Shown here one piece after another: positions 23,141-58,222 of a stretch of 64,000 bases of DNA. Below the pieces are notes generated by a model, which did no database searches, was not told where the DNA came from, and saw nothing but the letters and a program-made list of their open reading frames with translations. The number at the start of each line of letters is the position of its first letter. The first letter of the stretch is position 1. Where the stretch lies: positions 1 to 64,000 of the IMG/VR virus record IMGVR_UViG_3300042344_000673. One strand, written 5' to 3'. The DNA comes from a virus. The translations under genes were made by a program, and so were the position numbers.

Positions 23141-23872
23141 TTAAAATTTAAAAATTTCTTCAATACCTAATTCTTGGTTTTTATAAAATATTACCATATG
23201 GGGATTTTCAGGAGAATTATCAGTAAAGTAATATAACGCCAAAGATAAACGTTCCAAATTGTCGGGACAATTAAGAGGAGTTGGGTGTCCGTGAAGAGCA
23301 TTGTCGATGTCGAAAATAACCGCTCTATTGTATATAGGTTCAATTTCAACTTCTTTTTTCCAAGTTTCTTTATTCCATAGTTCGAGATTACCCCCATACT
23401 CGGTTACCCAATTTTTATTTAAATAAAGTAATAAATTCAATCTTCTATGTTTTTTTGTACCTGGTTGTAAGTTGTAATCTTCATGAATTGATAGTGAACC
23501 CCCTTTTTTTATTTTGTGAATTCCTCCACCAATCAAATAAGGGTCCCTGAAAAGATTATCTATACCCGTAAGACTTTGTAAGAATATTAGAAATTCCTTG
23601 GAATTTAGATATTCCATTAGAAGATTTGTTATAGGAAGTTTGTTCTTTATTTCTTGAGCGGTCGTGTCATGGTTTGGATAATAAAATTTATTAATCTCAT
23701 GTTCATTCACCCACTCAGTAGTATTATGAAACCAATCTTGATGGTTTTTGATTTCTTCCAAAACATTATCTAATAAAAATTCAGATAAAAAATTATCAAT
23801 TATAATGTGAGGATATGGCTTGGCAGATAAAAACTGTGTTCTTAAATTATTCGCCAAATTTAGGTTTATCAT
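23141..23872 (-). CDS. 2-oxoglutarate/Fe(II) oxygenase, prolyl 4-hydroxylase-like
   Basis: This 243-aa protein has the jelly-roll iron site. H130-x-D132 (S-I-H-E-D) follows G-G-x-L-S, H194 lies in N-A-L-H-G-H-P-T-P-L, and R208 in E-R-L-S-L-A-L-Y-Y is the expected 2-oxoglutarate ligand. The N-terminal P-H-I-I-I-D-N-F-L is typical of 2OG-Fe(II) oxygenases of the prolyl hydroxylase class. The substrate is not evident; it could be a protein Pro, a nucleotide or an amino acid. The ATG overlaps the exonuclease stop as ATGA, so it is co-translated with a replication gene. Confidence 0.75.
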   Translation of the reverse strand: MINLNLANNLRTQFLSAKPYPHIIIDNFLSEFLLDNVLEEIKNHQDWFHNTTEWVNEHEINKFYYPNHDTTAQEIKNKLPITNLLMEYLNSKEFLIFLQSLTGIDNLFRDPYLIGGGIHKIKKGGSLSIHEDYNLQPGTKKHRRLNLLLYLNKNWVTEYGGNLELWNKETWKKEVEIEPIYNRAVIFDIDNALHGHPTPLNCPDNLERLSLALYYFTDNSPENPHMVIFYKNQELGIEEIFKF

Positions 23873-24884: not shown

Positions 24885-25886
24885 TCAATCTTCTTTTTCT
24901 TCTGTTAAAGTGAAATCCCCTTCAGCGCCAATGATATCTTTCCAGTAATCAGCATACTCTTTTTTATAGGATTCGATAGAAGCCTTTTCTTCAGCACTGT
25001 CCTTTCCCGCTAAGAACCCATGTGGGGTAACAATAATTCTTCCGTCGTCATATCCTAATCCGTTGATATGATTTTTCATAACGGACACTTTACTTCTAAC
25101 GGCAAATTTAACTGAACGTTTGTCTTTGGTTGCTGTAATTTTTGTAGTTCCAGCACCTTTTTGATTTCCGAATAAAAACACAAGTGAGGAGTTCAACCAT
25201 ACTGATTCGCCACCTTTCGCTTTAATTTTCGGTTGACCAAATGGATTATCCGGAAGTTCAACCCAAGGTTGATTGATAATGATTAGAGTATTCTCGTATT
25301 CGGTATCCGCCTTTCTTGAGCCTGAAATTCTTTGATTGATACCCATTCCAATCTTGTCAGATAATACAGAGGCATTGTGTTGTTTTCCACCTTTACCTTC
25401 GTAGGTCATCTTACAAGGGACAGAACCAACAGAGTCCCAAATAAAACAAAGACTATAGTTCAATTCACCTTTTTCTTGAGCATCTAACAACTCATTGATG
25501 TAGTCGGTAATTTGTTCGATATAACTAAAGTTGTTATTGAATAAGAAAAATCCGTCCCAATCCATTTCACCTGTTTCTTTATCAACGACTTCTTCACATT
25601 GGAACCCCATTAATTTTGCGTGGTCGAAGCTCCATTTTTGTTCAGTAATGATGAATACGGGAAGAATCTCTTTTTTCTGAGCATCAACAGCAGCTTTGAT
25701 TGCGGCAGTCGTTTTACCTGTATCTGAGTGCCCCAAGAACATATTAATATGTCCAATAGCAGGACCAGGTAGTCCCACGGCATCCAAGAAATCTGAACCT
25801 AAATCCAAAAATCTTTGGGGTTTATATTTCGCAGAAGTTGAGAACTTCTTTTTTAAATTACTAAAGTCGTTTTTCTTAATAGCCAT
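24885..25886 (-). CDS. uvsX: UvsX/RecA-type recombinase
   Basis: This 333-aa protein has Walker A G-H-S-D-T-G-K-T-T (~52-60) and Walker B L-C-F-I-W-D-S-V-G-S. An I-I-I-N-Q-P-W region and an acidic C-terminal tail (E-E-K-E-D) follow. T4 UvsX (391 aa) drives strand exchange and recombination-dependent replication and acts with gp32. Here gp32 is two genes upstream in the same direction. The 70-aa gene ends 3 bases before its start. Confidence 0.85.
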   Translation of the reverse strand: MAIKKNDFSNLKKKFSTSAKYKPQRFLDLGSDFLDAVGLPGPAIGHINMFLGHSDTGKTTAAIKAAVDAQKKEILPVFIITEQKWSFDHAKLMGFQCEEVVDKETGEMDWDGFFLFNNNFSYIEQITDYINELLDAQEKGELNYSLCFIWDSVGSVPCKMTYEGKGGKQHNASVLSDKIGMGINQRISGSRKADTEYENTLIIINQPWVELPDNPFGQPKIKAKGGESVWLNSSLVFLFGNQKGAGTTKITATKDKRSVKFAVRSKVSVMKNHINGLGYDDGRIIVTPHGFLAGKDSAEEKASIESYKKEYADYWKDIIGAEGDFTLTEEKED

Positions 25887-26144: not shown

Positions 26145-26993
26145 TTAGAATGGTAAATCTGTGTCAGCGTCTTGGTCTGCTTGTGGGTCAACAAGTTTTG
26201 AACCTTTGGAACCACCCATTGCCGTTTCTGAAACTTCGTCGTCACCATAAACATAACCACCTTTTTCAGAATCCCATTTTGGTGTTTTACCTTCAGCAAT
26301 TGCTTCAAGATACTCAACAGGTTTTTTACTATAAACGTCAGTCCAAGTTAACTCATCAGATAACCATGCTTTAGCTTGGTCTTTATCTTCAGAGATTGGT
26401 GCTGGGTCGTCATACATAATAGCAGAAACTGTTGTGTATTCTTTACCTTTTGGAGTTTTAGATTTAGCCAACTCGATGATTAAGTCACGACCTTTATCAG
26501 GGTCAGTGATATCCCCCTTATTTCTCCAAATTGGAATAATCTTATCTAAGATACCTTCGTTCTTATAGTTGTGTTTGAATCTCCAAAACTTTGGGCCGTC
26601 TTGTTCATTGTCACGGTCAATAACTTTAACGATATAGAACTTACGTGACTTATATTGTTTAGCTAATTCTTTGTCAGATTCTTTACCTGTACTCATTAGC
26701 TCTTCGTAAACTTCGTTCAAAGGTGAACGTTCATTGTCATTTTTTCCTGGGTCGTAGAACTTTTGCCATTGACCACCAACTTGGATTTCATGATACCAAG
26801 CCTCTTTAAATGGTGAAGAACCATCTGCTGTTGGAAGGATACGAATTTTACGTTGTCCTGATTTCTCTTTATCACCAAGGATTAAAGCGAAATACTTTTT
26901 CATTCTTTCGTCTTGCGACATTCTTGATTGGGCCCCGCCCCCTGTTTGATTTTTTTCATACTGTGCCAATACGGCGTCTAATACATTACTCAT
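26145..26993 (-). CDS. gp32: Single-stranded DNA-binding protein, T4 gp32-like
   Basis: This 282-aa protein is close to T4 gp32 (301 aa). The N-terminal basic part and the core F-K-E-A-W-Y-H-E-I-Q-V-G-G-Q-W-Q-K-F-Y-D-P, then R-S-P-L-N-E-V-Y and S-R-K-F-Y-I-V-K-V-I-D-R, follow the family pattern. There is no Cys in the whole protein, so the zinc site of T4 gp32 is absent. The C-terminus is acidic and ends D-T-D-L-P-F, which resembles the D-D-I-P-F interaction tip of bacterial SSB. A promoter lies upstream and hairpins flank the gene on both sides, so it is probably transcribed strongly and partly alone. Confidence 0.8.
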   Translation of the reverse strand: MSNVLDAVLAQYEKNQTGGGAQSRMSQDERMKKYFALILGDKEKSGQRKIRILPTADGSSPFKEAWYHEIQVGGQWQKFYDPGKNDNERSPLNEVYEELMSTGKESDKELAKQYKSRKFYIVKVIDRDNEQDGPKFWRFKHNYKNEGILDKIIPIWRNKGDITDPDKGRDLIIELAKSKTPKGKEYTTVSAIMYDDPAPISEDKDQAKAWLSDELTWTDVYSKKPVEYLEAIAEGKTPKWDSEKGGYVYGDDEVSETAMGGSKGSKLVDPQADQDADTDLPF

Positions 26994-27015: not shown

Positions 27016-27047
27016 TAAATATAATTGGGATTTCCCTATTTGTCAAA
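27016..27047 (-). promoter_or_regulatory. Promoter of gp32
   Basis: On the minus strand, TTTG is followed after 20 bases by TATATTTA. This is close to the Bacteroidota pattern TTTG-N19-21-TAnnTTTG. The same bases also read as TTGACA-17-TATATT, a standard sigma70 form. It lies just after a terminator and 22 bases before the gp32 ATG. Confidence 0.5.
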
Positions 27048-44519: not shown

Positions 44520-47500
44520 TTAGATGTTCTCAAATGAAGCACCTGTCGGAGTTATAAAGAACTCAATATCAATAAACTCGAGAGCTTTCGTAGGTTTAAG
44601 ATAAATCTTACCTGTTAGAGTGTTTCTATCTAAATCCTCTGGTGAAGATGAAACTGTCACACGGAAGTCATACAAACCTCTATCTCTTCTTATTGAGTCT
44701 AATATCGGATTAACACTATCTAAGAATTGTTGTCTTACGATTTGGTCGTTTTGTTCAAACAACAATCTAACAGCTACAGCAGATATTAACTTACGTGCCT
44801 GAAGTAATAATCTTCTAACATTTAATCTGTTGAGTGCCGTATCCGCCACTTGAAGTGTTTTGTTACCCCAAATTACAGTTCCTACATCAGCAAATGTTGC
44901 GATTGGGTTGATTCTTCCTTGATAAAGAGTATCTCTATCTTGTTGAGTCAACTTAATTCTAGCCTTGATTGAATTTACAAGACCTCTTGTGTAACCCGCC
45001 GATGCGAACCAAGGGAATGAAATATTGTCAGTTAAAGCCAAGTTTCTACAAACCTCACCTGTCGGTGGTAAGTAAATTTGGGTATTATTAACAGTATCTC
45101 TAACTAATATCCAAGGATAATAAGTTGCTGTATAGTTCGAGTCAATTCCAGTGTCATCCAATCTGTCAACCGCAGTTTGTGGGTATTGAATCAACTGAGG
45201 GTCAGTACCGTCAGGTGAAAGCAAATCATAGTCTGGTGTTGTCGTGATATAAACGGAATCAGCTCTTTGGAATTGTATCATATCAATTGTTTTTTCAACA
45301 AGTGAGAAGTTATTGATATAATCGATACTAGCTGTCGCGAATACGTTTATGTTTGTTGCCTCAGGATTTGCGAACGTTAGAATACCAAGTAAATAAGCGT
45401 AGTAATCTGAGTTAGCAAAGTCTTGAGTATTATCTTCAACAACAATTCTTTTGAAGATACCTTGACCTGTTGCGTTGGGGTAACGAGAAGAAGGGAAGAA
45501 CCCTGCTAAGAATCCACTTTGACCGATTTGGAATCTGTCTTCGTTTGTTCTGTATTCTCTATAAATGTCCCATCCGTCAAAACCACCAGCAAAACAAATA
45601 GTATATTTTCTTGCGTAGATGAAGTAGTAAGGGTTTGCTTGGTCTTGAGGGTCGTTTCTGAATTCAGCTACACCACATTCGAATGCGGTCTGCCCTGAAG
45701 TTTGGAAAGCGGAACCAATTGTAACAACAGTTGCTCCAGAATCCATGTGGAAACCTTTTGAAATTTGGTTGAAAGGTAGGGATGTAGTTGCGTTGTAGAA
45801 ATCCACAACAGGGTTAAGTCTACCTTGATACCCTAACATTGATTCGTCCACTCCTACAGTATTAGAAAATCCTAAATATGTTCTTCTTACGATGTCTCCA
45901 GGAGATTCGTCAGCAGGTCCCGAATAAAAAGGTGTGTTGTAAACTGTTTCACCAGGGAAAAAGTATTTCACTTTGAATTTTGGTACAGGTGCTAAGTTAG
46001 TTGGTGACCCGTATATTTTTTGGTTGTAACCATAGAAACCACAAGGTAAAGCATCGATTGGGGCATTCTCTGCCATTTCCACCATGATAAATTTAGATAT
46101 TAAAGCAAATTCACCATCATGGGAACCGATTCTTTTTGCCACAAAATTATTAGACGCTGGGTCCATTGTACAGTTTGTGAACTTCTCAATTACAACTGGG
46201 TTAGCATCTGTATCGAAGAAATTACGTACTAATACATCAAATGTCATATTGTTGAAAGACAAGTTAGCAATTGAAACTTTGATTTCAACGTTCGCTGAAT
46301 CCCCGTCTGAAATAGAAATAAATCTAAACAAATCATAAACCTTATTACCTCTCAATTCCGAAACTAAGAAAGGAGATTTTGGTGATTGGTATTGCTCTAA
46401 TCTCCATCCGATAGATGTGTTAGACAAAGACCTAGCACTATCTAATGAGACTAAATTACAATTTAAACCTCTTATGTAAGATTGAAGATACGCATTCGAA
46501 AGAGCCGCAGGATAAACTTCGTCAACAAAAATAGGAACCTCATTTCTAGGTTTTCCAAAGTTTGTTGTACCGAGAACTTTAGTTATGAATTTTGAAGATG
46601 TAGGACTCATAGAAGTCTCAAATGAGAAGTCATCACCAGCGTTAGTAACCCCCGAAAGTAAGAATGTAAAATATGGGTCAGTTGTTATACCAGAATATTG
46701 GTCAGTACAAACCATTGTAACACCTGTTGTAGCACTAACCTCATAAATTGGACCGTGATTCTCACTTGTATTACTGTTAGTAAATAAAGATATACCTCTT
46801 GACCTCAAAGTAGCAATAACCATATTATTGTACTCAGTAAAGGAGAATGCTGAAAAAGTATAAATGTTACCTGACACAGTACCTGAAAATTCGTCAGTTC
46901 CTGTCGAGACTAAATTAGTTACAAAATAATCGTAAGAATAACCTGAATATAAATTACCTGTTGTAATATCGAAGTTAGCATAAAACCAAGCATCGTTATC
47001 ACCTGATGTTAATTCGTTGAAGTCTAAATTTGCAGAGTTAGTCTCGAAACCATTTATGACAACAGGGTATGTTGTAATCAATGATTGAAAATCAGAATTC
47101 GGAATAGCTCCATAAATGAAACATGTATAACCAGAGGATGCTGGTGCTTCCATTATTGAATCCAAATTCGTTGTGAACTCTTGATTGATTGTTGAAGTAC
47201 CTCCATTACTTAATCTGAATTGAACTTGTAATGAATTAGCAAGTATAGACGGTAAAGCAGTTAAATAACTGATTGTATTGTTAGCAGAATTTCCTGAGAA
47301 ATCAAAAGAAAATGGAATTATACCACCATCTAAAGCCATTGTTGTGGGGTCAGGATTTGCTACGGTTGTTATACTCCAAGAAGGACCGGCATCATAACCA
47401 GACAATCCCAACACCCTTGTTACAAAAAGTTGGTTTGATTGTTGAAGGTATGATTTAGCAATATATGCCGCCTCATACTTTGGAATTTGTGTACCCACAA

Positions 47501-47708
47501 ACTTGACAGGTTCAGTACCACCAAAATAGGCCTGAAACTCATCGTAGTTGGTAATGAACACTGGCTCGAAAGCTGGTCCTTTTATAGTCTCTCCAACGAG
47601 ACCTAATGTCGTTACACCCACACTCTGAGCCACGAACGATAAATCGGTCTCAGAAGTATAAACTCCGGGGGAAACATAAACTTTTTTGTTAGCGATTGCT
47701 GTTGCCAT
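44520..47708 (-). CDS. gp18: Contractile tail sheath protein, T4 gp18-like
   Basis: This 1062-aa protein begins with the sheath signature Y-V-S-P-G-V-Y-T-S-E-T-D and G-L-V-G-E-T-I-K-G-P-A. The C-terminal ~250 residues keep the conserved core: Y-P-W-I-L-V-R-D, P-P-T-G-E-V-C-R-N, F-A-D-V-G-T-V-I-W-G-N-K-T-L, then L-N-V-R-R-L-L-L-Q. It ends with a long beta strand region. T4 gp18 is 659 aa, so about 400 extra residues lie in the middle, probably as surface domains. It forms the outer tail sheath. A terminator follows it, and a TATTTATC octamer lies 38 bases before its ATG. Confidence 0.9.
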   Translation of the reverse strand: MATAIANKKVYVSPGVYTSETDLSFVAQSVGVTTLGLVGETIKGPAFEPVFITNYDEFQAYFGGTEPVKFVGTQIPKYEAAYIAKSYLQQSNQLFVTRVLGLSGYDAGPSWSITTVANPDPTTMALDGGIIPFSFDFSGNSANNTISYLTALPSILANSLQVQFRLSNGGTSTINQEFTTNLDSIMEAPASSGYTCFIYGAIPNSDFQSLITTYPVVINGFETNSANLDFNELTSGDNDAWFYANFDITTGNLYSGYSYDYFVTNLVSTGTDEFSGTVSGNIYTFSAFSFTEYNNMVIATLRSRGISLFTNSNTSENHGPIYEVSATTGVTMVCTDQYSGITTDPYFTFLLSGVTNAGDDFSFETSMSPTSSKFITKVLGTTNFGKPRNEVPIFVDEVYPAALSNAYLQSYIRGLNCNLVSLDSARSLSNTSIGWRLEQYQSPKSPFLVSELRGNKVYDLFRFISISDGDSANVEIKVSIANLSFNNMTFDVLVRNFFDTDANPVVIEKFTNCTMDPASNNFVAKRIGSHDGEFALISKFIMVEMAENAPIDALPCGFYGYNQKIYGSPTNLAPVPKFKVKYFFPGETVYNTPFYSGPADESPGDIVRRTYLGFSNTVGVDESMLGYQGRLNPVVDFYNATTSLPFNQISKGFHMDSGATVVTIGSAFQTSGQTAFECGVAEFRNDPQDQANPYYFIYARKYTICFAGGFDGWDIYREYRTNEDRFQIGQSGFLAGFFPSSRYPNATGQGIFKRIVVEDNTQDFANSDYYAYLLGILTFANPEATNINVFATASIDYINNFSLVEKTIDMIQFQRADSVYITTTPDYDLLSPDGTDPQLIQYPQTAVDRLDDTGIDSNYTATYYPWILVRDTVNNTQIYLPPTGEVCRNLALTDNISFPWFASAGYTRGLVNSIKARIKLTQQDRDTLYQGRINPIATFADVGTVIWGNKTLQVADTALNRLNVRRLLLQARKLISAVAVRLLFEQNDQIVRQQFLDSVNPILDSIRRDRGLYDFRVTVSSSPEDLDRNTLTGKIYLKPTKALEFIDIEFFITPTGASFENI

Positions 47709-49585: not shown

Positions 49586-50101
49586 TTATATTCCTCTAAA
49601 CTCGTTTTCACTCACATATGTGGCAACAACAGTTCTATAAAAAGGTTTGTATCCACCATATGTGTGTTTATTATCTGACCTCACATATCCATCATCACTT
49701 ACAGAATAATATCTCACTCTATCTTCGGTTTCATAATATCCCAAATAATCACCCATGAATATTTCCACACCCAAATCATCCAACTGTTTTTGGTAAAGAG
49801 AAAATCTCATATTACCTGGCTCTTGTTGTTCAACTTTAGAATTACCCAAAAATTTGTTTGTAGGTGCCATTACCTGAACAAGACCCTTCAACTCGACAGG
49901 TGCCAAGAATTGAACTCCGTCTTCCAAGACCTCGCCGTAGACGTCATCAGTTTTCGTTTTGTATCTATCGATTCTATAAAGAATTACAGTAAAGTTCATG
50001 TCCCCCTCTAACCACTCCTGCCCCATAGAAATGTCCAAAGCAAAATCCTCCCTTCCGAAAAACTTACCTAACCGAGAAATTGGAACTAAATTTTCTGCCA
50101 T
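49586..50101 (-). CDS. Neck protein candidate, T4 gp14-like
   Basis: This 171-aa protein has the shape of gp14-type neck proteins: F-F-G-R-E-D-F near the start, a Leu/Val beta region, then G-D-Y-L-G-Y-Y-E-T-E-D-R-V-R-Y-Y, and it ends with a strand plus N-E-F-R-G. T4 gp14 is 256 aa, so it is shorter. It sits beside the tail-completion candidate and divergently opposite a plus-strand block that holds a gp13-like gene. A TATTTATC octamer ends 3 bases before its ATG. Confidence 0.4.
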   Translation of the reverse strand: MAENLVPISRLGKFFGREDFALDISMGQEWLEGDMNFTVILYRIDRYKTKTDDVYGEVLEDGVQFLAPVELKGLVQVMAPTNKFLGNSKVEQQEPGNMRFSLYQKQLDDLGVEIFMGDYLGYYETEDRVRYYSVSDDGYVRSDNKHTYGGYKPFYRTVVATYVSENEFRGI

Positions 50102-50104
50102 ATT

Positions 50105-50112
50105 GATAAATA
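50105..50112 (-). promoter_or_regulatory. TATTTATC octamer before gp14-like gene
   Basis: The octamer ends 3 bases before the ATG at 50101, in a 45-base divergent spacer shared with the SET gene. Confidence 0.45.
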
Positions 50113-50121
50113 TTTTAATTT

Positions 50122-50129
50122 CATTTATA
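50122..50129 (+). promoter_or_regulatory. CATTTATA variant octamer before SET gene
   Basis: It differs from the common octamer at its first base and ends 17 bases before the ATG at 50147. Confidence 0.3.
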
Positions 50130-50146
50130 TTTCAAGTAAAAATTTT

Positions 50147-50545
50147 ATGAAAATATTTCCACCACAAAAAGTTTATGTCTCTGAAAGCAAAATTCATGGT
50201 ATGGGTGTCTTTGCTTCCGAAACAATAGAACAAGGAGAAATCTTCGAAGTGACACCATTGTTAGATTTGAAAATTCCAAAAGGGGAGCTAAGTGGGTGTA
50301 TGATTGATTACAGATTCAACTGGCCACAAGGCACAAATCCAGAACTTCAAGTTGTAGGGTGGGGATACGGTAGTTTATATAATCACTCCGAAACTCCAAA
50401 TGCCGCTTGGAAATCAAACATGGATAACTTCACCTTCGAATTTTATGCCACCCGAAAAATAGAAAAGGATGAAGAAATCCTTGTTTACTATGGTGATAGT
50501 CTTTATTGGAATGACGGAAGAGACCACGTCCAAATTAAATCATGA
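50147..50545 (+). CDS. SET-domain protein (lysine methyltransferase-type)
   Basis: This 132-aa protein has SET motif I (S-K-I-H-G-M-G-V-F-A) and the S-adenosylmethionine/pseudoknot motif G-Y-G-S-L-Y-N-H-S-E-T-P-N-A. Next comes F-Y-A-T-R-K-I-E-K-D-E-E-I-L-V-Y-Y-G-D, which contains the catalytic Tyr region. There is no pre-SET or post-SET Cys cluster, so it is a minimal SET domain. SET enzymes methylate lysines of proteins. Its stop overlaps the next gene's start as ATGA, so it is co-translated with a SNF2 helicase. The target is unknown. Confidence 0.8.
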   Translation: MKIFPPQKVYVSESKIHGMGVFASETIEQGEIFEVTPLLDLKIPKGELSGCMIDYRFNWPQGTNPELQVVGWGYGSLYNHSETPNAAWKSNMDNFTFEFYATRKIEKDEEILVYYGDSLYWNDGRDHVQIKS

Positions 50546-52296
50546 GTATAGAAGTTTCATTAGAATCTAAGGCACTTAGCATCCTTCAAGATTACGAAGG
50601 GGCTAACAATTATATTTTAGAACTTAAAAGAAAGTCTCAAGTCAACAAAAAATTTTATCCAACAAGAAGTCAGTCTGAGTACATTATCAATTTCCACGAC
50701 AAGCAACCCAAGGTTGCTAAAAAATGGGTAATCTTGGACGCTTATTTTGCTCAAAAACTTGCGGATGATAAATTACTCACACAAGTACCTGAAAAAGTAT
50801 GGGTAGAAAAACTTTTAGCGGAAAAAGAAAAGGCTTATCACATTTGGGGTAAAATCCAAGACTCAGAACAATTACACGAATTTTGGCTACCAAAAGCCTC
50901 TCTCATCAAAGATAATACAGTCAAAGACGTTGTCATCGATTATTCAAAATATGAACATCGTCCACCTCTTACACATCAAAAAGAAGCAATCCAAAAACTT
51001 GTAGAAAATAAAAAATATATTTTGGCTGATGATATGGGTTTGGGAAAAACTACGTCAACAATCATTGCTGCTTTGGAGTCAGGTGCCAAAAAGGTTTTAA
51101 TAATTTGTCCCGCAACATTAAAAATAAATTGGAAGAGAGAGATTCAAAACTACTCCACCAAAAGTGTGTATATTTGTGAAGGGAAAAACTTTGAACCGAA
51201 TCACGACTTCATTATAATAAATTATGACATAATAAAAAATTTCCATGACACTAAAAGAAAAAATGAATCGCAAATTGTTAGCGCCGATTTTGATTTGGTG
51301 GTTGTTGATGAAGCACACTATATCAAAAATGCTCAAGCTCAACGTACGAAACTAATCAATGATATTGTTAAAAAAGTCGATAGGTTGTGGCTTCTAACCG
51401 GAACTCCAATGACATCAAGACCAATTGATTATTATAATCTATTGAATTTGGTTGATTCCCCCGTGGCAAAAAATTGGATGGCATACGTTATTAGATATTG
51501 TTCCGGTTATCAATTTAGAGTTGGTCCAAGAAAGGTGTGGAACGTGATGGGGGCATCTAATTTGGAAGAACTAAGAGACAGAACGTTAAATTCAACTTTG
51601 AGGCGGTTGAAGGAAGATGTTTTAGATTTACCTGAAAAAATTATTACCCCCGTATACTTGAGATTAAAATCCAAAATATATGAGGAGGTTATGGGTGAGT
51701 ATTATAATTGGTATGAAAAAAATCCTGACGAATCGAAATCACTAACTGTTCAGTTCACAAAACTCACAAAGGTTAGACAGATTTTGGCGGATGAGAAAAT
51801 TGAAAAAACAATTGAATTAGCAGAAAACATTTTAGAACAAGACAAAAAAGTTATAATATTCTGTAACTTCACAAATTCATTAAATAAGATTACGGAACAC
51901 TTTGGAAAATCTGCCGTCAAACTCGACGGCTCAATGTCTAAAACTGAAAGACAATTCGCAGTGGACCAATTTCAAGAAAATGAAAAAGTTAAAGTTTTTG
52001 TGGGAAACATCAAGGCAGCTGGTGTTGGTATAACACTTACCTCAGCAGAAGCAGTTATAATGAATGATTTGTCATTCTTACCATCAGACCATTCACAGGC
52101 GGAGGACAGAGCTTACAGATTCGGGCAAAAGAATAACGTCTTGGTTTATTATCCCATTTTTGAAAACACCATTGAAGGAATAATATACGATATTCTCAAT
52201 AACAAAAAAAATGTAATTGCGACAGTTATGGGAGATAACAATCAAGTCGATTACGTCGAAGAAATTTTACAAAGAATAAATGAATTAAGAAATTAG
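50542..52296 (+). CDS. SNF2-family helicase/translocase
   Basis: This 584-aa protein has an N-terminal ~130-residue extension, then a SNF2 ATPase. Motif I is D-D-M-G-L-G-K-T-T (~165), Ia I-I-C-P-A-T-L, motif II V-V-D-E-A-H-Y-I-K-N (~255) and motif III L-L-T-G-T-P-M. In the second lobe it has A-A-G-V-G-I-T-L-T-S-A and Q-A-E-D-R-A-Y-R-F-G-Q. Such proteins move along double-stranded DNA and remodel protein-DNA complexes or fork structures. In T4, UvsW does fork remodelling, but this sequence is SNF2-type. Coupling to the SET gene is by ATGA. Confidence 0.88.
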   Translation: MSIEVSLESKALSILQDYEGANNYILELKRKSQVNKKFYPTRSQSEYIINFHDKQPKVAKKWVILDAYFAQKLADDKLLTQVPEKVWVEKLLAEKEKAYHIWGKIQDSEQLHEFWLPKASLIKDNTVKDVVIDYSKYEHRPPLTHQKEAIQKLVENKKYILADDMGLGKTTSTIIAALESGAKKVLIICPATLKINWKREIQNYSTKSVYICEGKNFEPNHDFIIINYDIIKNFHDTKRKNESQIVSADFDLVVVDEAHYIKNAQAQRTKLINDIVKKVDRLWLLTGTPMTSRPIDYYNLLNLVDSPVAKNWMAYVIRYCSGYQFRVGPRKVWNVMGASNLEELRDRTLNSTLRRLKEDVLDLPEKIITPVYLRLKSKIYEEVMGEYYNWYEKNPDESKSLTVQFTKLTKVRQILADEKIEKTIELAENILEQDKKVIIFCNFTNSLNKITEHFGKSAVKLDGSMSKTERQFAVDQFQENEKVKVFVGNIKAAGVGITLTSAEAVIMNDLSFLPSDHSQAEDRAYRFGQKNNVLVYYPIFENTIEGIIYDILNNKKNVIATVMGDNNQVDYVEEILQRINELRN

Positions 52297-52308
52297 TAAG
52301 GTTCGTGT

Positions 52309-52316
52309 TATTTATA
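52309..52316 (+). promoter_or_regulatory. TATTTATA octamer before SOD-fusion gene
   Basis: It is on the plus strand and ends 14 bases before the ATG at 52331. Confidence 0.45.
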
Positions 52317-52330
52317 TACACAGACCTCTT

Positions 52331-53869
52331 ATGTTAGAAATAGAAAAAAAAATATCACAACTCGAATTTAGGATTTTAGAGAATCACATAAACAAAGAGA
52401 AAGAGTTGTTACTTACAGAAATGAAAAAAATAGGGATTGAAAAACTCCCATATTCTTATTCAGCCCTCAAACAATTTATTGACCCTGAAACAATGGATTT
52501 CCATTATAATAAACATTATAAAGGATACGTTGATAAATTAAATGATGCCTTAGCTAAGAAAAAATATGGTGATTTAGAATTAGAACAAATTATCAAATCG
52601 ATAAGTAGATTTGACAAAACAATCAGAAATAATGCTGGTGGGGCATTTAACCACGCATTGTTTTGGAACATGCTGACCCCAAACCCCAAAAAATTAACAG
52701 GAATACTTTACGAAAAAATTGTGAAGGAGTTTGGTTCATTCACCTCATTCAAGAAAAAATTCGAAACAGTAGCTAAAGACAGATTTGGTTCTGGTTGGGT
52801 ATGGTTGGTTTTGACAGCAAAAAATAAACTTAAGATAATGTCTACCCCAAACCAAGATAACCCATTGATGAATGTCATCGAAGGTGGGGGTTTTCCAATT
52901 TTAGGATTAGATTTGTGGGAACATGCTTATTATCTGAAATACAAAAACAAAAGAGATGAATATATTTCTAACTTTTGGAAAGTTGTAAATTGGGATTTTG
53001 TGACAAAACTTTATGAAATGAAGACCGAAACCAAGCTTTTGGAAACCCAAGAAATCAGAAAATTAATTAACGAATCTAAGGAGCCTAAATTTTGTAACCC
53101 TAAAGAAACAATATCTTATAAAGCAGTAATAGATAATCCAAAATTGAAAAGAATTTACCAAGACGGTATAACAAAAGTATTAAAAAAGATATTCGGTGAA
53201 TTTTGGGTTGAGTCTGAAAAAGGGGAAATGTCTGGATTTTACGGTATCGAATCAGAACAAGGAAGGTCGATTTTGAATAACTTGAATACGAATTTCAATA
53301 CATTTTGTTTACTAACAAAGGCTATTAATAAAGAAATCTTGACAGAAAAACCTGATGGAAGGACCTTTGATTTTTCTCAAGAAAAAAATAGAACTTTGGA
53401 AGAAATGAATAGATTCATCAAAGTTTTAGACATTTTCAGAAAAAGAATTTTCAATAAGAACAACGAGGACTTCATAAACATAATAAATGTTTTGAGTAAA
53501 CTTTGGAAAAGAGGACAGAAGTCTGAAGATAACGCCCTGAAGAAAATGGAAGATTATTTTGGTAAAGACGTAGAAATAGAAAAACTCGGAGCTCATGGTA
53601 GTAAAAATGATGCTTTGAAAGGTATAGACCTGAAAATCAAACTATCCGGTGATTCTTTCACTGCACAAGTGAAACCATATTCTGTTTTTTCTGTTATCAA
53701 AGATAAAATTGAATTATTAGATACGGGTAATGTAAAACCTTACGATGTAGACTGGTTGATTTTTATTCAACCAAAATCCAATAAAACGTTAATATTTAAG
53801 AATAAACCATTGAGTAGTGAAGGACAATACGTTTTTAACGTGGAGTCACTAATTCATGAAATTGAATAA
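52331..53869 (+). CDS. Mn/Fe superoxide dismutase fused to a PD-(D/E)XK nuclease-like domain
   Basis: This 512-aa protein has an intact SOD at residues ~38-225. All four metal ligands are present: H62 in N-K-H-Y, H108 in F-N-H-A-L-F-W, D194 and H198 in L-D-L-W-E-H-A-Y-Y. Q175 in N-Q-D-N-P, plus N-N-A-G-G, points to the Mn/cambialistic type. A ~200-residue helical region follows. Near the C-terminus come G-I-D433-L-K-I and Q446-V-K448, the D-(x)n-(E/Q)-x-K signature of restriction-type nucleases. The C-terminal assignment is inference; the SOD is secure. The N-terminal ~37 residues form a charged helix. It lies in the plus-strand block after SNF2. Confidence 0.7.
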   Translation: MLEIEKKISQLEFRILENHINKEKELLLTEMKKIGIEKLPYSYSALKQFIDPETMDFHYNKHYKGYVDKLNDALAKKKYGDLELEQIIKSISRFDKTIRNNAGGAFNHALFWNMLTPNPKKLTGILYEKIVKEFGSFTSFKKKFETVAKDRFGSGWVWLVLTAKNKLKIMSTPNQDNPLMNVIEGGGFPILGLDLWEHAYYLKYKNKRDEYISNFWKVVNWDFVTKLYEMKTETKLLETQEIRKLINESKEPKFCNPKETISYKAVIDNPKLKRIYQDGITKVLKKIFGEFWVESEKGEMSGFYGIESEQGRSILNNLNTNFNTFCLLTKAINKEILTEKPDGRTFDFSQEKNRTLEEMNRFIKVLDIFRKRIFNKNNEDFINIINVLSKLWKRGQKSEDNALKKMEDYFGKDVEIEKLGAHGSKNDALKGIDLKIKLSGDSFTAQVKPYSVFSVIKDKIELLDTGNVKPYDVDWLIFIQPKSNKTLIFKNKPLSSEGQYVFNVESLIHEIE

Positions 53870-53876
53870 ATATTGA

Positions 53877-53884
53877 TATTTATA
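53877..53884 (+). promoter_or_regulatory. TATTTATA octamer before gp13-like gene
   Basis: It is on the plus strand and ends 3 bases before the ATG at 53888. Confidence 0.45.
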
Positions 53885-53887
53885 GAT

Positions 53888-55015
53888 ATGGCAGTAATTC
53901 CAGAACCAGAAAGAACCAGAATATATACGAGAATCAAACACCTTCTCGGTGCCCCGTTAAGGAGCGTCGAATTAGAAGATGAAATGTTAGATTCCTTAAT
54001 GGAACTATCCATCGGTGATTACGAAGAATACGTTCTACAATGGTTAATTGATAGTCAATGGGTTAACTTAGTAAACCTCAACATGTCTGAAAAATCAGTT
54101 GCTCAAGCTTTGATTACTAGGACCATGGATTTCGAACAACAATTTGCCTACTCATATTCTAAAATTGTGGGACTACAAACTGTGGGACCTTGGGTGTTGA
54201 AAAAAGATTATTTTATTCTCGAGGCTAACAAACAAAACTATGAAATCCCTGCTGGACGTGAAGTTAACGAATTACTTTGGTTCAGTAACCAACCTTGGAC
54301 AGCATTTGGTTTAGGTGGTGTTGGCGGATTCGGATTTGGTGGAATAGGATTAGGTGCTAATGAAGCCGGATATGCTCAAATGGGATACCAAGGTTCATAT
54401 TTTATGATGTCTGGTTTTGACTATTTGATTAGAATGCAAGAAGCCAATATCTTAAATAGAATTTTAGGGGGGTCATTAACATATAGAATAACGGCCCTTC
54501 CTGATGGCAAGAAGAACATTTTCTTATATAATACGCCAGGTGGAAGATTCAATTGGAGCAACTACAGTCTATACGCTGGTAAAGCAGTTTGGTATTGGTA
54601 TTATGATGTAAATCCTGATAACAGAGCAGATTGTTTGAAAAATAACCCTGATGTTATTAAGTTACCAACAGATGTTCCCATCTCTGAATTATCTTGGGAG
54701 GACTTGAATGTCCCTGGTCAACAATGGGTTAGAAGATGGTTTACTGCTTATTGTAAAGAAACGTTATCTCGAGTACGAGGTAAGTACATGGGTAACTTGA
54801 AAACTCCTGATACCGAAATTCAAATGGAATATCAGAGTTTGTCAACTGAAGCAAAAGACGAAAAGGCGAAACTTTTAGAAGAACTCATCGGTGAGAACGG
54901 ATGGTTGTCAAGACTTAGACCTGAGAAGGTTATGGAGCGAGAGGCATCTATAGCTGAAAACTTAAATAAACAAATGAAATTCAGAGCGTTCCCACGTCAA
55001 ATTTATGTAATCTAA
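53888..55015 (+). CDS. Neck protein candidate, T4 gp13-like
   Basis: This 375-aa protein has an N-terminal part I-K-H-L-L-G-A-P-L-R-S-V-E-L-E-D-E-M-L-D-S, then D-Y-E-E-Y. This is the L-G-x-P-x-x-x-V-E-L pattern seen in gp13-type neck proteins (T4 gp13, 309 aa). A Gly-rich stretch with F-G-F-G-G-I-G-L-G lies near residue 147, and a charged helical C-terminus follows. The ATG at 53888 is preferred over the in-frame TTG at 53873. A TATTTATA octamer sits 3 bases before the ATG. The next gene starts at TAATG. The neck assignment fits the nearby gp14-like gene. Confidence 0.5.
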   Translation: MAVIPEPERTRIYTRIKHLLGAPLRSVELEDEMLDSLMELSIGDYEEYVLQWLIDSQWVNLVNLNMSEKSVAQALITRTMDFEQQFAYSYSKIVGLQTVGPWVLKKDYFILEANKQNYEIPAGREVNELLWFSNQPWTAFGLGGVGGFGFGGIGLGANEAGYAQMGYQGSYFMMSGFDYLIRMQEANILNRILGGSLTYRITALPDGKKNIFLYNTPGGRFNWSNYSLYAGKAVWYWYYDVNPDNRADCLKNNPDVIKLPTDVPISELSWEDLNVPGQQWVRRWFTAYCKETLSRVRGKYMGNLKTPDTEIQMEYQSLSTEAKDEKAKLLEELIGENGWLSRLRPEKVMEREASIAENLNKQMKFRAFPRQIYVI

Positions 55016-55350
55016 TGGCAATCGTAAGAAGCATACCATCAAGAAGAATTATAAACGGACATTCTATACAAACTTCCGAAATTTCTGTAGTTTCTGAACT
55101 TAATTATAAAACTAACGGAGAGTCTTGCGTTATCATCCGAGGTGTTGAAGAATCTTTCGTTGTATTAGATTCCACAACTACTGACCACGTTGTTGTAAAA
55201 GCAATGACATACCTCACTGTCACACCTGATGTTGGAAAAATTGACGAAGAATATGATGAACTTGTTATGGACAAATTTGCCTGTGTTGAATTCAGATTTG
55301 CCAACAACAATTGGTATATTCTTTCATCAGACGGATTGAAACAATCCTAA
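55015..55350 (+). CDS. Small unknown protein
   Basis: This 111-aa protein begins M-A-I-V-R-S-I-P-S-R-R-I-I-N-G-H-S-I and then forms a beta-rich domain (~25-105) with alternating hydrophobic and charged residues. No family is recognised. It is coupled to the gp13-like gene by TAATG and overlaps the DNA polymerase stop by 24 bases in convergent orientation. A virion decoration or neck accessory role is possible from position only. Confidence 0.5.
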   Translation: MAIVRSIPSRRIINGHSIQTSEISVVSELNYKTNGESCVIIRGVEESFVVLDSTTTDHVVVKAMTYLTVTPDVGKIDEEYDELVMDKFACVEFRFANNNWYILSSDGLKQS

Positions 55351-58125
55351 TTTTTGTTCCCAACCATCCTCAGCTAATTCGTAAATATAATTCGGACTTA
55401 GTCCTCTTTTTTCCCAATAAGATAACTCTTGTTCAGTTATTTGTAGAACGTCCTCTTCAAGTTTATCTTGGTCACCTTCTTCAAAGGGCATACCGTTGAT
55501 TAATTCACATTGAGCGTTCGTGAATATACCACGGGATTCTGGGTCTGTTACAATTAAATTGTCTCTAACTTCTTGTTGAAAGACAACCAATAAAGGTTCG
55601 ATTCTTTTGTTGAAAGTTGCGATAGCTCGAGGAACATTGTACTCACCTGTCATCTCTGGATTAGTTTCCAAAATATTAGAATTAAGCATATAACAATTAA
55701 CAATTACACCATCAGAAATTGGTTTGTAATTTGGATTGAGGTTTAAGTTGTATTCGTTTGTTTCCTTAATTTGTTTAGCGGTCATTTTTTGTACATCACC
55801 TTGAGACGCCTTTTTACCATTGTTTACGTACATAATAACATCCCCAAGATTAACATTCAAACCCTCTTGTATTGCTAATTCCATATGCGCCATACGACTC
55901 ATACTATTTCCAGCCTTAGTTTTTTGTGTTAACCTTTTTTTGTAGTCATCTAAGGTTAGTTTAACTTTTGCTCGTTGGGCAATTTTAGATAATGGAACTT
56001 GTTGGTCAAATATCTTTTTCAGATACTCGTAGTAATATTCAATGAAGTTTTTACCATCACCATTCAACAAAAGTTTAATTCCTTTGTCCAAGAATTCTTC
56101 AATATATAAAGGGAGTTTTTTTGATTTAATGGAATTGCCAGTCAACTTTATCTTTCCCTTAGCATCCATAACTGCGTAATTTTTTCTGGCAAGATTTATA
56201 CAGGATGGCCATACACCATCGGTATCTAACGCCATTTCACCTCTCATGAAAATATCATTATATTCTGCCACGTCAGCGTCGGGACCAGTATATTCTTTTC
56301 CTACTTTAACTTTCCAGTTCAAACCCCGGCCAACGTAACGATGATTTTCTACTCCTTCAGGACTTGAAAAGTTTACACCGTCCGTATCCATAACAAGTGG
56401 AACGTATCCTTTTGACATAAAGAATTTAATCATCTGTCTCAAGTACTGACGACCTGTACATGTAATTTGTTCACCCATGTACATATCACCCCAAGCATAA
56501 ACCTGTGGTGCTGACAACGCACCGAACATTGAGTTAATGAAAATCTTGATTGGAAGTTGTTTGTTTGAATATGAAGAAGAAAGTGCTGGGTCAGTTGTAT
56601 AATACTCTTCGGCAAGTTGTTTATACTTAATACGAGTATCACGGAAATACTTCAACATTCCTTTCATCGCACCTGTCACATCACACTGTGGGAATACATC
56701 GTGTACGAGCTGAATAGAGGGGTATAGAGACGAGAAGTCGAGCTTGAGTACATTCTTACTATACCCAACCTTAAGTAGTCGAGAAAGACCTCCTACGAAG
56801 TCTGTCTTGTCTTGTTTGGCCGGGATTGCTAAACCGTGTTTATATGACCATGCCAACATTAACATTTTCCAAAGGGTTGCGGTTCCCATAGTTGATACCC
56901 TTTCATATGTTGTTGGAATCATTGAAGCAAGTAGGAATGAGGCTTGATTGAACTCTTTATCCACCGCTAATGTTTCTTCCAAGTCATCGTCAAGATATCT
57001 TTCGACTAAATTATCTCCGGTCGTTTTTAAATAAATGTCTGAACGACTTTCACATATAGTGTCAATCTTAGTATCTTGTCCAACTTTGCGGTAGTTACCG
57101 TTCTGAATATTCAACCAATACTCTTCTTTTTTTTCATACATTTTTCCAATATGGCCGTGGTCAATGTAAACTCGGTCTTTGGCTTCTTTGCCAATAAATG
57201 TGGTTATGTATTTAAGTCCCGCAGCTTTGATATTCGAATTGATTGCCTGAGCTCTTCTGACTGCGTGAATAATATCAATAACATTATACCCCCAAATTGA
57301 AGTCTGAGTATAATCCTCCACCTCATTTGCCAATTTCAATATTGATTCTTTTCTTGTGTACGAATGTTGGGGGTGAAGTGATTTTATCGACTTCCTCATA
57401 TCTATTCCTAATCTCTGACCTCTCTCGAACAACCAATGCCAGTCGAAGTTTGCTGAGTTGTAACCTCCAATGATTGAAGGTTTTATTTGGTCGATAACAT
57501 TAAAAAACTCGATGATTGCTCCCTTTTCTTGGGACTCGTCCAAACACTCAATGACTCTGTGAAAACCTTTGTTTGTTTTGATTCCAATCATAAAAATTCG
57601 ACCATCTTTAGGGTCCAAAGCATTTGTCTCCAAGTCGAATACCAAACGTGTCACATCATCATAATCAGTATATCCTTTGAATAGCCTTTTTTCCTTTGAA
57701 ACAAGATATTGTTCAACGGGGGGTAAAACCATAACTTTATCTTTGGTTTTTTCTCCCCAAGGGTCACAACCACCGTCACGGAAAAATTGTATAAGCTCAC
57801 GATATCCCTTCAGAGATTTTACCATAAAGGTTAAACCTTTCTCAAGTCTTTCGTCACCTTTAGTCTCGAGCTTATCAATAACAATTCCATATTTTGTCAT
57901 AGCCTCTTTTTGAGCCATTTTGGAGTTGTTATAGAAGTTGAGACCTCTTAGGTCACCAACCCAAGCAAAAGGGATGAATGTATCTTTACGAATTTCTTTT
58001 CCTTTACCAGGAATTTCTTTGATTTTAAAAATGGAGTTTGAAACGTAGTCAAACTCGATAGCAACTATAAATTCTTCGGGGTCGTTTCCATGTAGGAACG
58101 ACTCAATTTCTTGAGGGTCAATCAT
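55327..58125 (-). CDS. gp43: Family B DNA polymerase, T4 gp43-like
   Basis: This 932-aa protein is close to T4 gp43 (898 aa). Exonuclease motifs are intact: Exo I D164-L-E-T and Exo II N-S-A-N-F-D. Polymerase motifs are A: D-F-S-S-L-Y-P-S-I; B: K-I-F-I-N-S-M-F-G-A-L; C: V-M-D-T-D-G. The usual motif C is (Y)-G-D-T-D-S, so Ser is replaced by Gly here. A-R-K-N-Y lies after it. The protein copies phage DNA with proofreading. It is the only replication gene placed far from the gp32-helicase group. A TATTTATT octamer (58188-58195) lies 62 bases before its ATG. Confidence 0.92.
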   Translation of the reverse strand: MIDPQEIESFLHGNDPEEFIVAIEFDYVSNSIFKIKEIPGKGKEIRKDTFIPFAWVGDLRGLNFYNNSKMAQKEAMTKYGIVIDKLETKGDERLEKGLTFMVKSLKGYRELIQFFRDGGCDPWGEKTKDKVMVLPPVEQYLVSKEKRLFKGYTDYDDVTRLVFDLETNALDPKDGRIFMIGIKTNKGFHRVIECLDESQEKGAIIEFFNVIDQIKPSIIGGYNSANFDWHWLFERGQRLGIDMRKSIKSLHPQHSYTRKESILKLANEVEDYTQTSIWGYNVIDIIHAVRRAQAINSNIKAAGLKYITTFIGKEAKDRVYIDHGHIGKMYEKKEEYWLNIQNGNYRKVGQDTKIDTICESRSDIYLKTTGDNLVERYLDDDLEETLAVDKEFNQASFLLASMIPTTYERVSTMGTATLWKMLMLAWSYKHGLAIPAKQDKTDFVGGLSRLLKVGYSKNVLKLDFSSLYPSIQLVHDVFPQCDVTGAMKGMLKYFRDTRIKYKQLAEEYYTTDPALSSSYSNKQLPIKIFINSMFGALSAPQVYAWGDMYMGEQITCTGRQYLRQMIKFFMSKGYVPLVMDTDGVNFSSPEGVENHRYVGRGLNWKVKVGKEYTGPDADVAEYNDIFMRGEMALDTDGVWPSCINLARKNYAVMDAKGKIKLTGNSIKSKKLPLYIEEFLDKGIKLLLNGDGKNFIEYYYEYLKKIFDQQVPLSKIAQRAKVKLTLDDYKKRLTQKTKAGNSMSRMAHMELAIQEGLNVNLGDVIMYVNNGKKASQGDVQKMTAKQIKETNEYNLNLNPNYKPISDGVIVNCYMLNSNILETNPEMTGEYNVPRAIATFNKRIEPLLVVFQQEVRDNLIVTDPESRGIFTNAQCELINGMPFEEGDQDKLEEDVLQITEQELSYWEKRGLSPNYIYELAEDGWEQKLGLFQSV

Positions 58126-58187: not shown

Positions 58188-58195
58188 AATAAATA
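58188..58195 (-). promoter_or_regulatory. TATTTATT octamer upstream of DNA polymerase
   Basis: It lies 62 bases before the ATG at 58125. The distance is longer than usual, so the link is weak. Confidence 0.3.
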
Positions 58196-58222
58196 TAATA
58201 AAAAAAAATTACCTAATCAAAA

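What the first reader, a model, noticed from the sequence alone, without database searches (positions are those of the whole stretch)
50147..53869. SET-domain protein translationally coupled to a SNF2 translocase, beside a SOD-nuclease fusion
The SET gene stop overlaps the SNF2 start as ATGA, so the two are made together. SET lysine methyltransferases and SNF2 remodellers are typical chromatin partners, and seeing both as an adjacent pair in a phage is unusual. The third gene carries a SOD plus a nuclease-like domain. All three are plus-strand genes in an otherwise mostly minus-strand region. They could form a module that modifies and remodels host DNA-bound proteins, or a counter-defence system.
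Basis: partly seen in the sequence, partly recalled or inferred. Interest (0 to 1): 0.75.

Follow-up and report, generated by a model that had tools for sequence, protein, structure and literature searches.

The report
Phage lysine methyltransferase coupled to SNF2
Large uncultured phages, probably of Bacteroidota, often place a gene for a likely protein-methylating enzyme directly in front of, and usually overlapping, the gene for their core DNA-translocating motor, so the two should be made together; the pairing is real and recurrent, but the enzyme is an optional extra whose target is unknown.

Summary
SET (50147-50545), SNF2 (50542-52296) and SOD-fusion (52331-53869) genes head a five-gene plus-strand operon; the SET stop and SNF2 start overlap as ATGA. 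Relatives split the trio into core and cargo: of 67 non-redundant IMG/VR loci, SNF2 is in 67, the SOD fusion in 64, SET in 42. SNF2 was the only Helicase_C protein found in four of four 317-321 kb relatives, and the window encodes UvsX-like and gp32-like proteins, so SNF2 is best read as a UvsW-type recombination translocase, not a chromatin remodeller. The fusion is an Mn-type SOD with intact ligands plus a probable PD-(D/E)XK domain. SET resembles PfSET7 and PBCV-1 vSET, with catalytic residues invariant in 34 of 34. It comes and goes (three lineages; tandem copies in both orders), yet sits between SNF2's conserved Bacteroidota-type promoter and SNF2; 31 of 42 SET/SNF2 junctions overlap or abut, against 0 of 57 and 1 of 64 at the next two. 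Most likely SET is an accessory protein-lysine methyltransferase that borrows, and may act with, the SNF2 expression unit, probably on a host protein. Activity, target and partnership are unshown; counter-defence is untested.

The parts
50103..50132 (+). Conserved Bacteroidota-type promoter-like element TTG-N20-TATATTT of the SET/SNF2 operon
   Evidence: Only exact match of the longer pattern in the window, mean 0.00 in shuffles; element or close variant in 65 of 67 relative clusters, spacer 20 in 64 of the 65; consensus TTTG/TANNTTTG from passages of PMC6847099
50147..50545 (+). SET-domain protein, likely protein-lysine methyltransferase, 132 aa, vSET/PfSET7-like
   Evidence: PF00856 2.6e-13; 5h6z 1.4e-13, 4rz0 2.4e-12, 1n3j 7.8e-9; G20, N79, H80, E110, Y115 invariant in 34 of 34 aligned
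50542..50545 (+). ATGA overlap: SNF2 start codon over SET stop codon
   Evidence: Read directly; -4 overlap in 14 of 42 clusters, -1 in 13, 0 in 4
50542..52296 (+). SNF2-family dsDNA translocase, 584 aa; inferred UvsW-type role
   Evidence: PF00176/PF00271, phrog_62 DNA helicase 9.4e-113, 1z63 1.5e-33; Walker A K169, DEAH 256-259 and motif VI residues invariant in 49 of 49 aligned
52331..53869 (+). Mn-type superoxide dismutase fused to a C-terminal PD-(D/E)XK-like domain, 512 aa
   Evidence: PF00081+PF02777; ligand positions invariant in 37 of 37 aligned
52439..53020 (+). SOD domain (residues 37-230)
   Evidence: phmmer to SOD 6gsc 1.5e-60; VIA-align Z 17.4, rmsd 2.3, 151 aligned with 3cei
53465..53866 (+). 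PD-(D/E)XK-like core (residues 379-512) with E399, D433, Q446, K448
53873..55015 (+). Head-tail adaptor-like protein, fourth gene of the operon (NECK380)
   Evidence: phrog_211 7.6e-9
55015..55350 (+). Conserved 111-aa protein of unknown function, last gene of the operon
   Evidence: conserved position in relatives
49586..50101 (-). Conserved left flank, divergently transcribed (G171)
55327..58125 (-). Family B DNA polymerase, right flank; promoter-like TTG-N20-TATATTT at 58191-58220 (-), 65 nt upstream
   Evidence: PF00136 1.6e-14; element
24885..25886 (-). UvsX-like recombinase (context for the SNF2 role)
   Evidence: phrog_97 4.1e-15; PF00154 1.9e-4, below its cut-off
26145..26993 (-). gp32-like single-strand-binding protein; same promoter type at 27017-27046 (-)
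   Evidence: PF08804 6.2e-10, phrog_1192 5e-13; element

Best explanation
A core-plus-cargo operon in a large phage lineage that probably infects Bacteroidota. Core: the SNF2 protein is the only Helicase_C translocase detected in long relatives and most likely does what T4 UvsW does beside UvsX and gp32 (branch migration, fork or R-loop remodelling in recombination-dependent replication). The next gene gives a Mn-SOD fused to a resolvase-like PD-(D/E)XK domain, which plausibly processes DNA under oxidative stress. Cargo: SET is an active-looking stand-alone protein-lysine methyltransferase that repeatedly occupies the slot between SNF2's promoter and SNF2 and is probably translated in a coupled way. 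The slot gives it the timing and dose of SNF2. Its patchy, mobile, divergent history suggests a host target (a nucleoid, transcription or defence protein) rather than a fixed phage one. Shown: order, junctions, promoter-like element, conserved active sites, core and accessory status. Inferred: the UvsW-like role, the nuclease activity, the methyltransferase activity, the coupling itself and the host target.
For: SNF2 in 67 of 67 clusters, SOD fusion 64, SET 42; with the structural-gene anchor alone, 36 of 36 clusters have SNF2 and SOD and 24 of 36 have SET. SNF2 the only Helicase_C match in 4 of 4 records of 317-321 kb. UvsX-like, gp32-like, DnaB-like and PolB genes in the window. PMC7824862 (passages) proposes that jumbo-phage Snf2/Swi2 proteins could replace UvsW. 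Nearest in-frame SNF2 ATG at -4, -1 or 0 from the SET stop in 31 of 42, and 11 others between -8 and +12, against 0 of 57 SNF2-SOD junctions, 1 of 64 SOD-NECK junctions and 7 of 40 same-strand neighbours in the window. Promoter element with and without SET, 40 of 42 and 25 of 25. SET presence needs 8 changes on the SNF2 tree, of which well-supported branches force 3. Type A and B SETs in tandem in both orders, L104 and L304. Low dN/dS in the closest SET pairs.
Against: No activity or target was shown for any protein. The UvsW role is by analogy; UvsX itself is a weak Pfam match. Three of the four long records look like one lineage (same coordinates and identities), so 'only helicase' rests on about two lineages. 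The host call rests on promoter type and on cellular SET relatives that include many Saprospiraceae; the polymerase's nearest named relatives, at only 26% or less, are phages of Salinibacter, then of cyanobacteria. SET's preference for the slot (52 of 65 distinct loci) argues that it is more than a random passenger and may act with SNF2. Every scan kept only the best 80 relatives, so the sample leans to the window's near kin. The median dN/dS over all 140 usable SET pairs is 0.41 (saturated dS), so strong constraint is shown only for the closest pairs.
Confidence: 0.45

Rival explanations
1. SET and SNF2 are functional partners: SET methylates SNF2, or proteins that SNF2 meets on DNA, and the pair remodels host DNA-bound proteins.
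For: 31 of 42 junctions overlap or abut and 42 of 42 lie within -8 to +12 nt, counting the second SET of L304 as the neighbour. Three SET lineages (two type A clades, one type B clade) occupy the same slot. Of 65 distinct closest SET loci, 52 have SNF2 next, 10 are elsewhere and 3 end at the contig edge.
Against: SNF2 persists without SET in 25 of 67 clusters. SET is relocated although SNF2 is kept in the phages of L016 and L018. None of 139 SET-bearing loci from outside the syntenic set has SNF2 in the flank held. No lysine column of SNF2 or the SOD fusion tracks SET.
Confidence: 0.27
2. SET is only an expression passenger: the divergent gap next to a conserved promoter is an insertion hotspot and overlaps arise because space is tight.
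For: Promoter element 7-23 nt upstream of SET (one locus, with a second SET between, 374) and 16-23 nt upstream of SNF2 where SET is absent. Other ORFs also occur beside the gap (L083, L286), and ORFs resembling HNH endonucleases follow SNF2 in L122, L302 and L304.
Against: Junctions just downstream are not tight (0 of 57; 1 of 64). Repeated occupation by the same family rather than by varied cargo.
Confidence: 0.2
3. The three genes form a dedicated counter-defence module.
For: SNF2 scores against helicases of Zorya, DpdE and DISARM; variable cargo at a fixed site is typical of anti-defence loci (general knowledge).
Against: Those matches are generic SNF2 similarity, far below the curated NCBIfam cut-offs. 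SNF2 and SOD fusion are core or near-core genes, unlike anti-defence cargo.
Confidence: 0.08

Closest known systems
PBCV-1 vSET (A612L, 1n3j) and Plasmodium SET7 (5h6z)
   Same: Compact SET domain; aligned NHS region and Tyr (window Y115 over vSET Y105) (that this Tyr is catalytic is recalled). vSET is viral and raises host H3K27 methylation (passages of PMC3089700).
   Different: Bacterial host without eukaryotic histones; operon with SNF2; activity and target unknown.
Stand-alone SET proteins of bacteria, archaea and other phages (many Saprospiraceae, Methanoculleus; Stenotrophomonas phages Moby, Marzo, Yut2; 735-kb phage LR756501)
   Same: Same small SET family; 418 cellular relatives found, best 80 kept; 6 of 50,697 phage records, two of them second copies. 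Stenotrophomonas phage Ps15 is also said to have a SET ORF (one passage of PMC9025141).
   Different: No SNF2 relative in the flanks held for any of the 139 such loci tested.
T4 UvsW and jumbo-phage Snf2/Swi2 helicases
   Same: SF2 translocase in a phage with UvsX-like and gp32-like proteins; PMC7824862 proposes Snf2/Swi2 as a possible UvsW substitute.
   Different: SNF2 subfamily; closest solved relative by sequence is Sulfolobus SNF2/Rad54 1z63. UvsW itself was not compared.
Bacterial Mn-superoxide dismutase
   Same: Residues 38-230 align to 6gsc at 1.5e-60; ligand positions conserved.
   Different: Carries about 280 extra C-terminal residues; no match to these in 50,697 phage records at E 0.01. 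A full-length relative exists in BFVD, A0A6J5L953, 501 aa, 46% identity, named only superoxide dismutase.

Membership tests
SET-domain protein lysine methyltransferase (PF00856) | SET profile over the curated cut-off | tested here: met
   50.7 bits against 22.4, full profile 1-105
SET-domain protein lysine methyltransferase (PF00856) | SAM-site NH(S) motif and catalytic Tyr (motifs recalled) | tested here: met
   N79, H80, Y115 invariant in 34 of 34 sequences aligned, of 42 SET clusters; Y115 aligns with vSET Y105
SET-domain protein lysine methyltransferase (PF00856) | Lysine methyltransferase activity | not testable with these tools
   Needs an assay
SNF2 family of SF2 translocases | SNF2-rel domain plus Helicase_C with conserved motifs I, II, VI | tested here: met
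   PF00176, PF00271; motif residues invariant in 49 of 49 aligned
Chromatin or nucleosome remodeller | Nucleosome-like or HU-like substrate in the system | tested here: inconclusive
   No PF00216 protein in 4 of 4 long relatives; other nucleoid families and host proteins untested
UvsW-type recombination helicase (functional role) | Sole SF2 translocase beside UvsX and gp32 | tested here: met
   One Helicase_C protein in each of 4 long relatives, about two lineages; UvsX-like and gp32-like in the window. Helicases without PF00271 not searched
UvsW-type recombination helicase (functional role) | Branch-migration or annealing activity | not testable with these tools
   Needs biochemistry
Fe/Mn superoxide dismutase | Both domains and the metal ligands | tested here: met
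   PF00081, PF02777; H58, H108, D194, H198 and Q175 invariant in 37 of 37 aligned; assignment to MnSOD ligand positions is mine, from recall
PD-(D/E)XK nuclease superfamily | E...D...(E/Q)xK on a matching fold | tested here: inconclusive
   E399, D433, Q446, K448 invariant; fold matches to named PD-(D/E)XK and resolvase models at E 0.035-0.23, aligned range not shown; no profile match

The most novel reading that the evidence does not exclude
A phage-encoded protein-lysine methylation system: a vSET-like enzyme made together with the phage's core SNF2 translocase methylates proteins that the translocase meets on DNA (host nucleoid, transcription or defence proteins, or SNF2 itself). This would be a functional analogue of eukaryotic methyltransferase-remodeller pairs, assembled repeatedly in one phage lineage.
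Probability: 0.27. Interest if true: 0.87.

Novelty: new variant of a known kind. Interest (0 to 1): 0.55.

Why it matters
Protein lysine methylation by phages seems essentially unexplored: in the searches listed I found only a gene list naming a phage SET protein. A slot that repeatedly captures SET genes in front of a core DNA motor gives a concrete system in which to ask what a SET enzyme does in a cell without eukaryotic histones, and whether the methyltransferase-remodeller pairing exists outside eukaryotes. The SOD-nuclease fusion is a second unusual architecture, present in 64 of 67 clusters.

Tried and rejected
Lysines covarying with SET presence: none in SNF2, SOD fusion, G171, NECK380 or G111; one column in G346 (K 0.62 against 0.08), not pursued because relatedness confounds it. 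SNF2 next to SET in other phages or cells: of 145 loci tested 6 had it, all syntenic members of this clade, and 139 did not; flanks were cut short at contig ends in many. The relocated SETs of L004 and L016 were not in that set; L016 has SNF2 about 6 kb away on the same contig. PADLOC and NCBIfam membership of SNF2: generic similarity only. HU-like phage substrate: none in 4 of 4. The C-terminal domain against PDB sequences, Pfam and phage records: nothing significant (DUF6602 in 6 of 20 members, best E 0.0088). The C-terminal scan of IMG/VR returned, in its best 80, only close kin (fusion partners there not checked one by one). The listed rows of the PDB fold searches are SOD or SOD-like matches, so they say nothing about the C-terminal part. 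The SNF2 model is weak (mean pLDDT 65); its PDB matches confirm only the SNF2 fold, and its N-terminal 130 residues stay unassigned. T4-late-type TATAAATA promoter (recalled): exact forward form absent from the divergent gap in 63 loci, which led to the TTG-N20-TATATTT element. My first junction count (33 of 42) included calls without a real start codon; recounted with in-frame ATGs it is 31 of 42. My first count of SET loci with SNF2 next (51 of 65) missed L491, whose SNF2 is split by an intein; recounted it is 52. Fisher p 2.7e-7 for junction tightness against the window's neighbours treats related clusters as independent and is only indicative.
Full report
WHAT IS THERE. The window is 64,000 bases of a 66,077-base virus record. 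They head a plus-strand run of five genes: SET, SNF2, SOD fusion, a head-tail adaptor-like gene and a 111-aa gene. The run is flanked by minus-strand structural genes on the left (tail sheath 44520-47708) and a minus-strand family B DNA polymerase on the right. The SET stop and SNF2 start share ATGA.

THE PROTEINS. SET is a 132-aa stand-alone SET domain. Its best solved relatives are Plasmodium SET7 (1.4e-13), 4rz0 (2.4e-12) and PBCV-1 vSET (7.8e-9). G20, N79, H80, E110 and Y115 are invariant in all 34 sequences aligned, of 42 SET-bearing clusters, and Y115 aligns with vSET Y105. Type A members share a C-terminal YW-x-DGR-like stretch that type B lacks. SNF2 has both helicase domains and invariant motifs in 49 of 49 aligned sequences, of 60 complete. 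The third protein has a Mn-type SOD with ligand positions invariant in 37 of 37 sequences aligned, of 64. Its C-terminal half has no significant family match but keeps E399, D433, Q446 and K448, is modelled as a long helix followed by a mainly beta region, and weakly resembles named viral PD-(D/E)XK and Holliday-junction-resolvase models (E 0.035 to 0.23; the output does not show which residues align, so that these fall on the C-terminal part is inferred). I treat it as a probable nuclease of that superfamily, not a proven one.

CO-OCCURRENCE. Four IMG/VR scans, anchored on SET, SOD fusion, SNF2 and the adaptor gene, each kept the best 80 of 87 to 597 relatives. They gave 199 loci holding both flanks, 98 distinct intervals and 67 clusters at 95% identity. 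SNF2 is present in 67, the SOD fusion in 64, SET in 42; 39 have all three, 25 lack SET and 3 lack the SOD fusion. SET-anchored loci bias SET upward, and the cap favours the window's near kin. With the adaptor anchor alone, 80 loci gave 63 with both flanks and 36 clusters: 24 with all three and 12 without SET. So the trio is not obligate. SNF2 is core, the SOD fusion nearly so, SET accessory. In the records behind four SET-less loci no SET was found elsewhere, but three of these records are 112-166 kb and so incomplete beside the 317 kb relatives.

COUPLING AND PROMOTER. In the 42 SET clusters the in-frame SNF2 ATG nearest the homologous start lies at -4 from the SET stop in 14, -1 in 13 and 0 in 4, that is 31 of 42. 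The other 11 lie between -8 and +12, two of them by a TTG, and in L304 the neighbour counted is its second SET gene. The next junctions of the same operon are at -4 to 0 in 0 of 57 (SNF2-SOD) and 1 of 64 (SOD-NECK); for same-strand neighbours in the window it is 7 of 40. The gap between the divergent left flank and SET/SNF2 holds TTG-N20-TATATTT or a close variant in 65 of 67 clusters, spacer 20 in 64 of the 65. It is present in 40 of 42 with SET and 25 of 25 without; of the two misses one shows a variant and one had its start set too far upstream. This resembles the Bacteroidota consensus TTTG/TANNTTTG (passages of PMC6847099, which also say that the -33 element is weak in their data). In the window the same spacing occurs 24 nt before the gp32-like gene (27017-27046) and 65 nt before the DNA polymerase (58191-58220), among 13 loose matches where a simple shuffle gives about 7. 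SET therefore sits between SNF2's own promoter-like element and SNF2.

HISTORY OF SET. On an SNF2 tree of 60 of the 67 clusters, SET presence needs 8 changes (3 forced by well-supported branches) and type (A, B, both, none) 14. On a tree of 84 SET proteins, the 13 syntenic type B proteins form one clade (97%), and the 31 type A proteins fall in two, one of them together with three SETs found elsewhere in phages (short alignment; I chose 41 of the 139 other SET loci by hand and 38 passed the filters, plus L004 and L016). L104 and L304 carry both types in tandem, in opposite orders (I looked only at loci with unusual intervals, so there may be more). Of 80 closest SET loci, best of 449, 65 are distinct: 52 have SNF2 next, 10 are elsewhere and 3 end at the contig edge. 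The 'elsewhere' group includes glycosyltransferase regions of related phages and different phages (judged by eye from the ORFs). None of 139 SET-bearing phage and cellular loci from outside the syntenic set has SNF2 in the flank held. The closest SET pairs have dN/dS 0.03-0.18 (27 pairs with dN up to 0.18, of 60 printed of 140); the median of all 140 is 0.41 with saturated dS. SNF2 medians 0.05 and the SOD fusion 0.13. SET is under selection but evolves faster than SNF2.

ROLE OF SNF2. In four long relatives (317-321 kb, about two lineages) a search for Helicase_C found one protein each, this SNF2. The window encodes UvsX-like, gp32-like, DnaB-like and PolB proteins. PMC7824862 (passages read) suggests that Snf2/Swi2 helicases of jumbo phages could stand in for UvsW. 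A UvsW-like role is the economical reading and would also suit a neighbour with a resolvase-like domain. It is inference.

MECHANISM I COMMIT TO. SNF2 drives joint-molecule or fork remodelling in recombination-dependent replication. The SOD-nuclease is its conserved neighbour. SET is a mobile lysine methyltransferase that lodges in the SNF2 expression unit and most likely modifies a host protein. The partner model, in which SET modifies SNF2 or what SNF2 meets, keeps about one chance in four because the same slot is used so often.

NOVELTY. Each component family is known. I found no description of a SET-SNF2 operon in phages in eight library searches, of which I saw listings only, nor in passages of three papers. 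One paper lists a phage SET ORF without function (PMC9025141). The SOD fusion exists, named only superoxide dismutase, in a viral structure library (A0A6J5L953). I rate it a new variant of known kinds.

Noticed in passing
window 50103-50132 (+), 27017-27046 (-), 58191-58220 (-): Promoter-like TTG-N20-TATATTT elements before the SET/SNF2 operon, the gp32-like gene and the DNA polymerase; a Bacteroidota-type promoter suggests the host phylum and shared timing with replication genes.
   Followed up: partly
L491:6399-9278: An SNF2 gene of 959 aa with an in-frame insertion of about 375 aa matching LAGLIDADG and Hint domains, that is, a probable intein inside the SNF2 ATPase domain.
   Followed up: partly
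L122:7311-7991, L302:6666-7427, L304:6758-7432: ORFs of about 220-250 aa resembling HNH homing endonucleases between SNF2 and the SOD fusion (HNH profile 0.0037, below cut-off, in L302; no match in L122; L304 not scanned).
   Followed up: partly
L104:5400-6202, L304:4166-4980: Two different SET genes in tandem in front of SNF2, in opposite orders in the two phages.
   Followed up: yes
L308 (LR756501, 735 kb phage): A stand-alone SET gene (45.8% identity) in a 735-kb phage record, with no SNF2 relative found in the record.
   Followed up: partly
window 23141-23872 (-): 2OG-Fe(II) oxygenase (PF13640, 2.2e-18) within the replication gene cluster.
   Followed up: no
window 19263-21125 (-): Protein of 620 aa matching ribonucleotide reductase (phrog_367, 2.2e-130), with a B12-dependent type II insertion domain (PF21995, 1.4e-7).
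   Followed up: no
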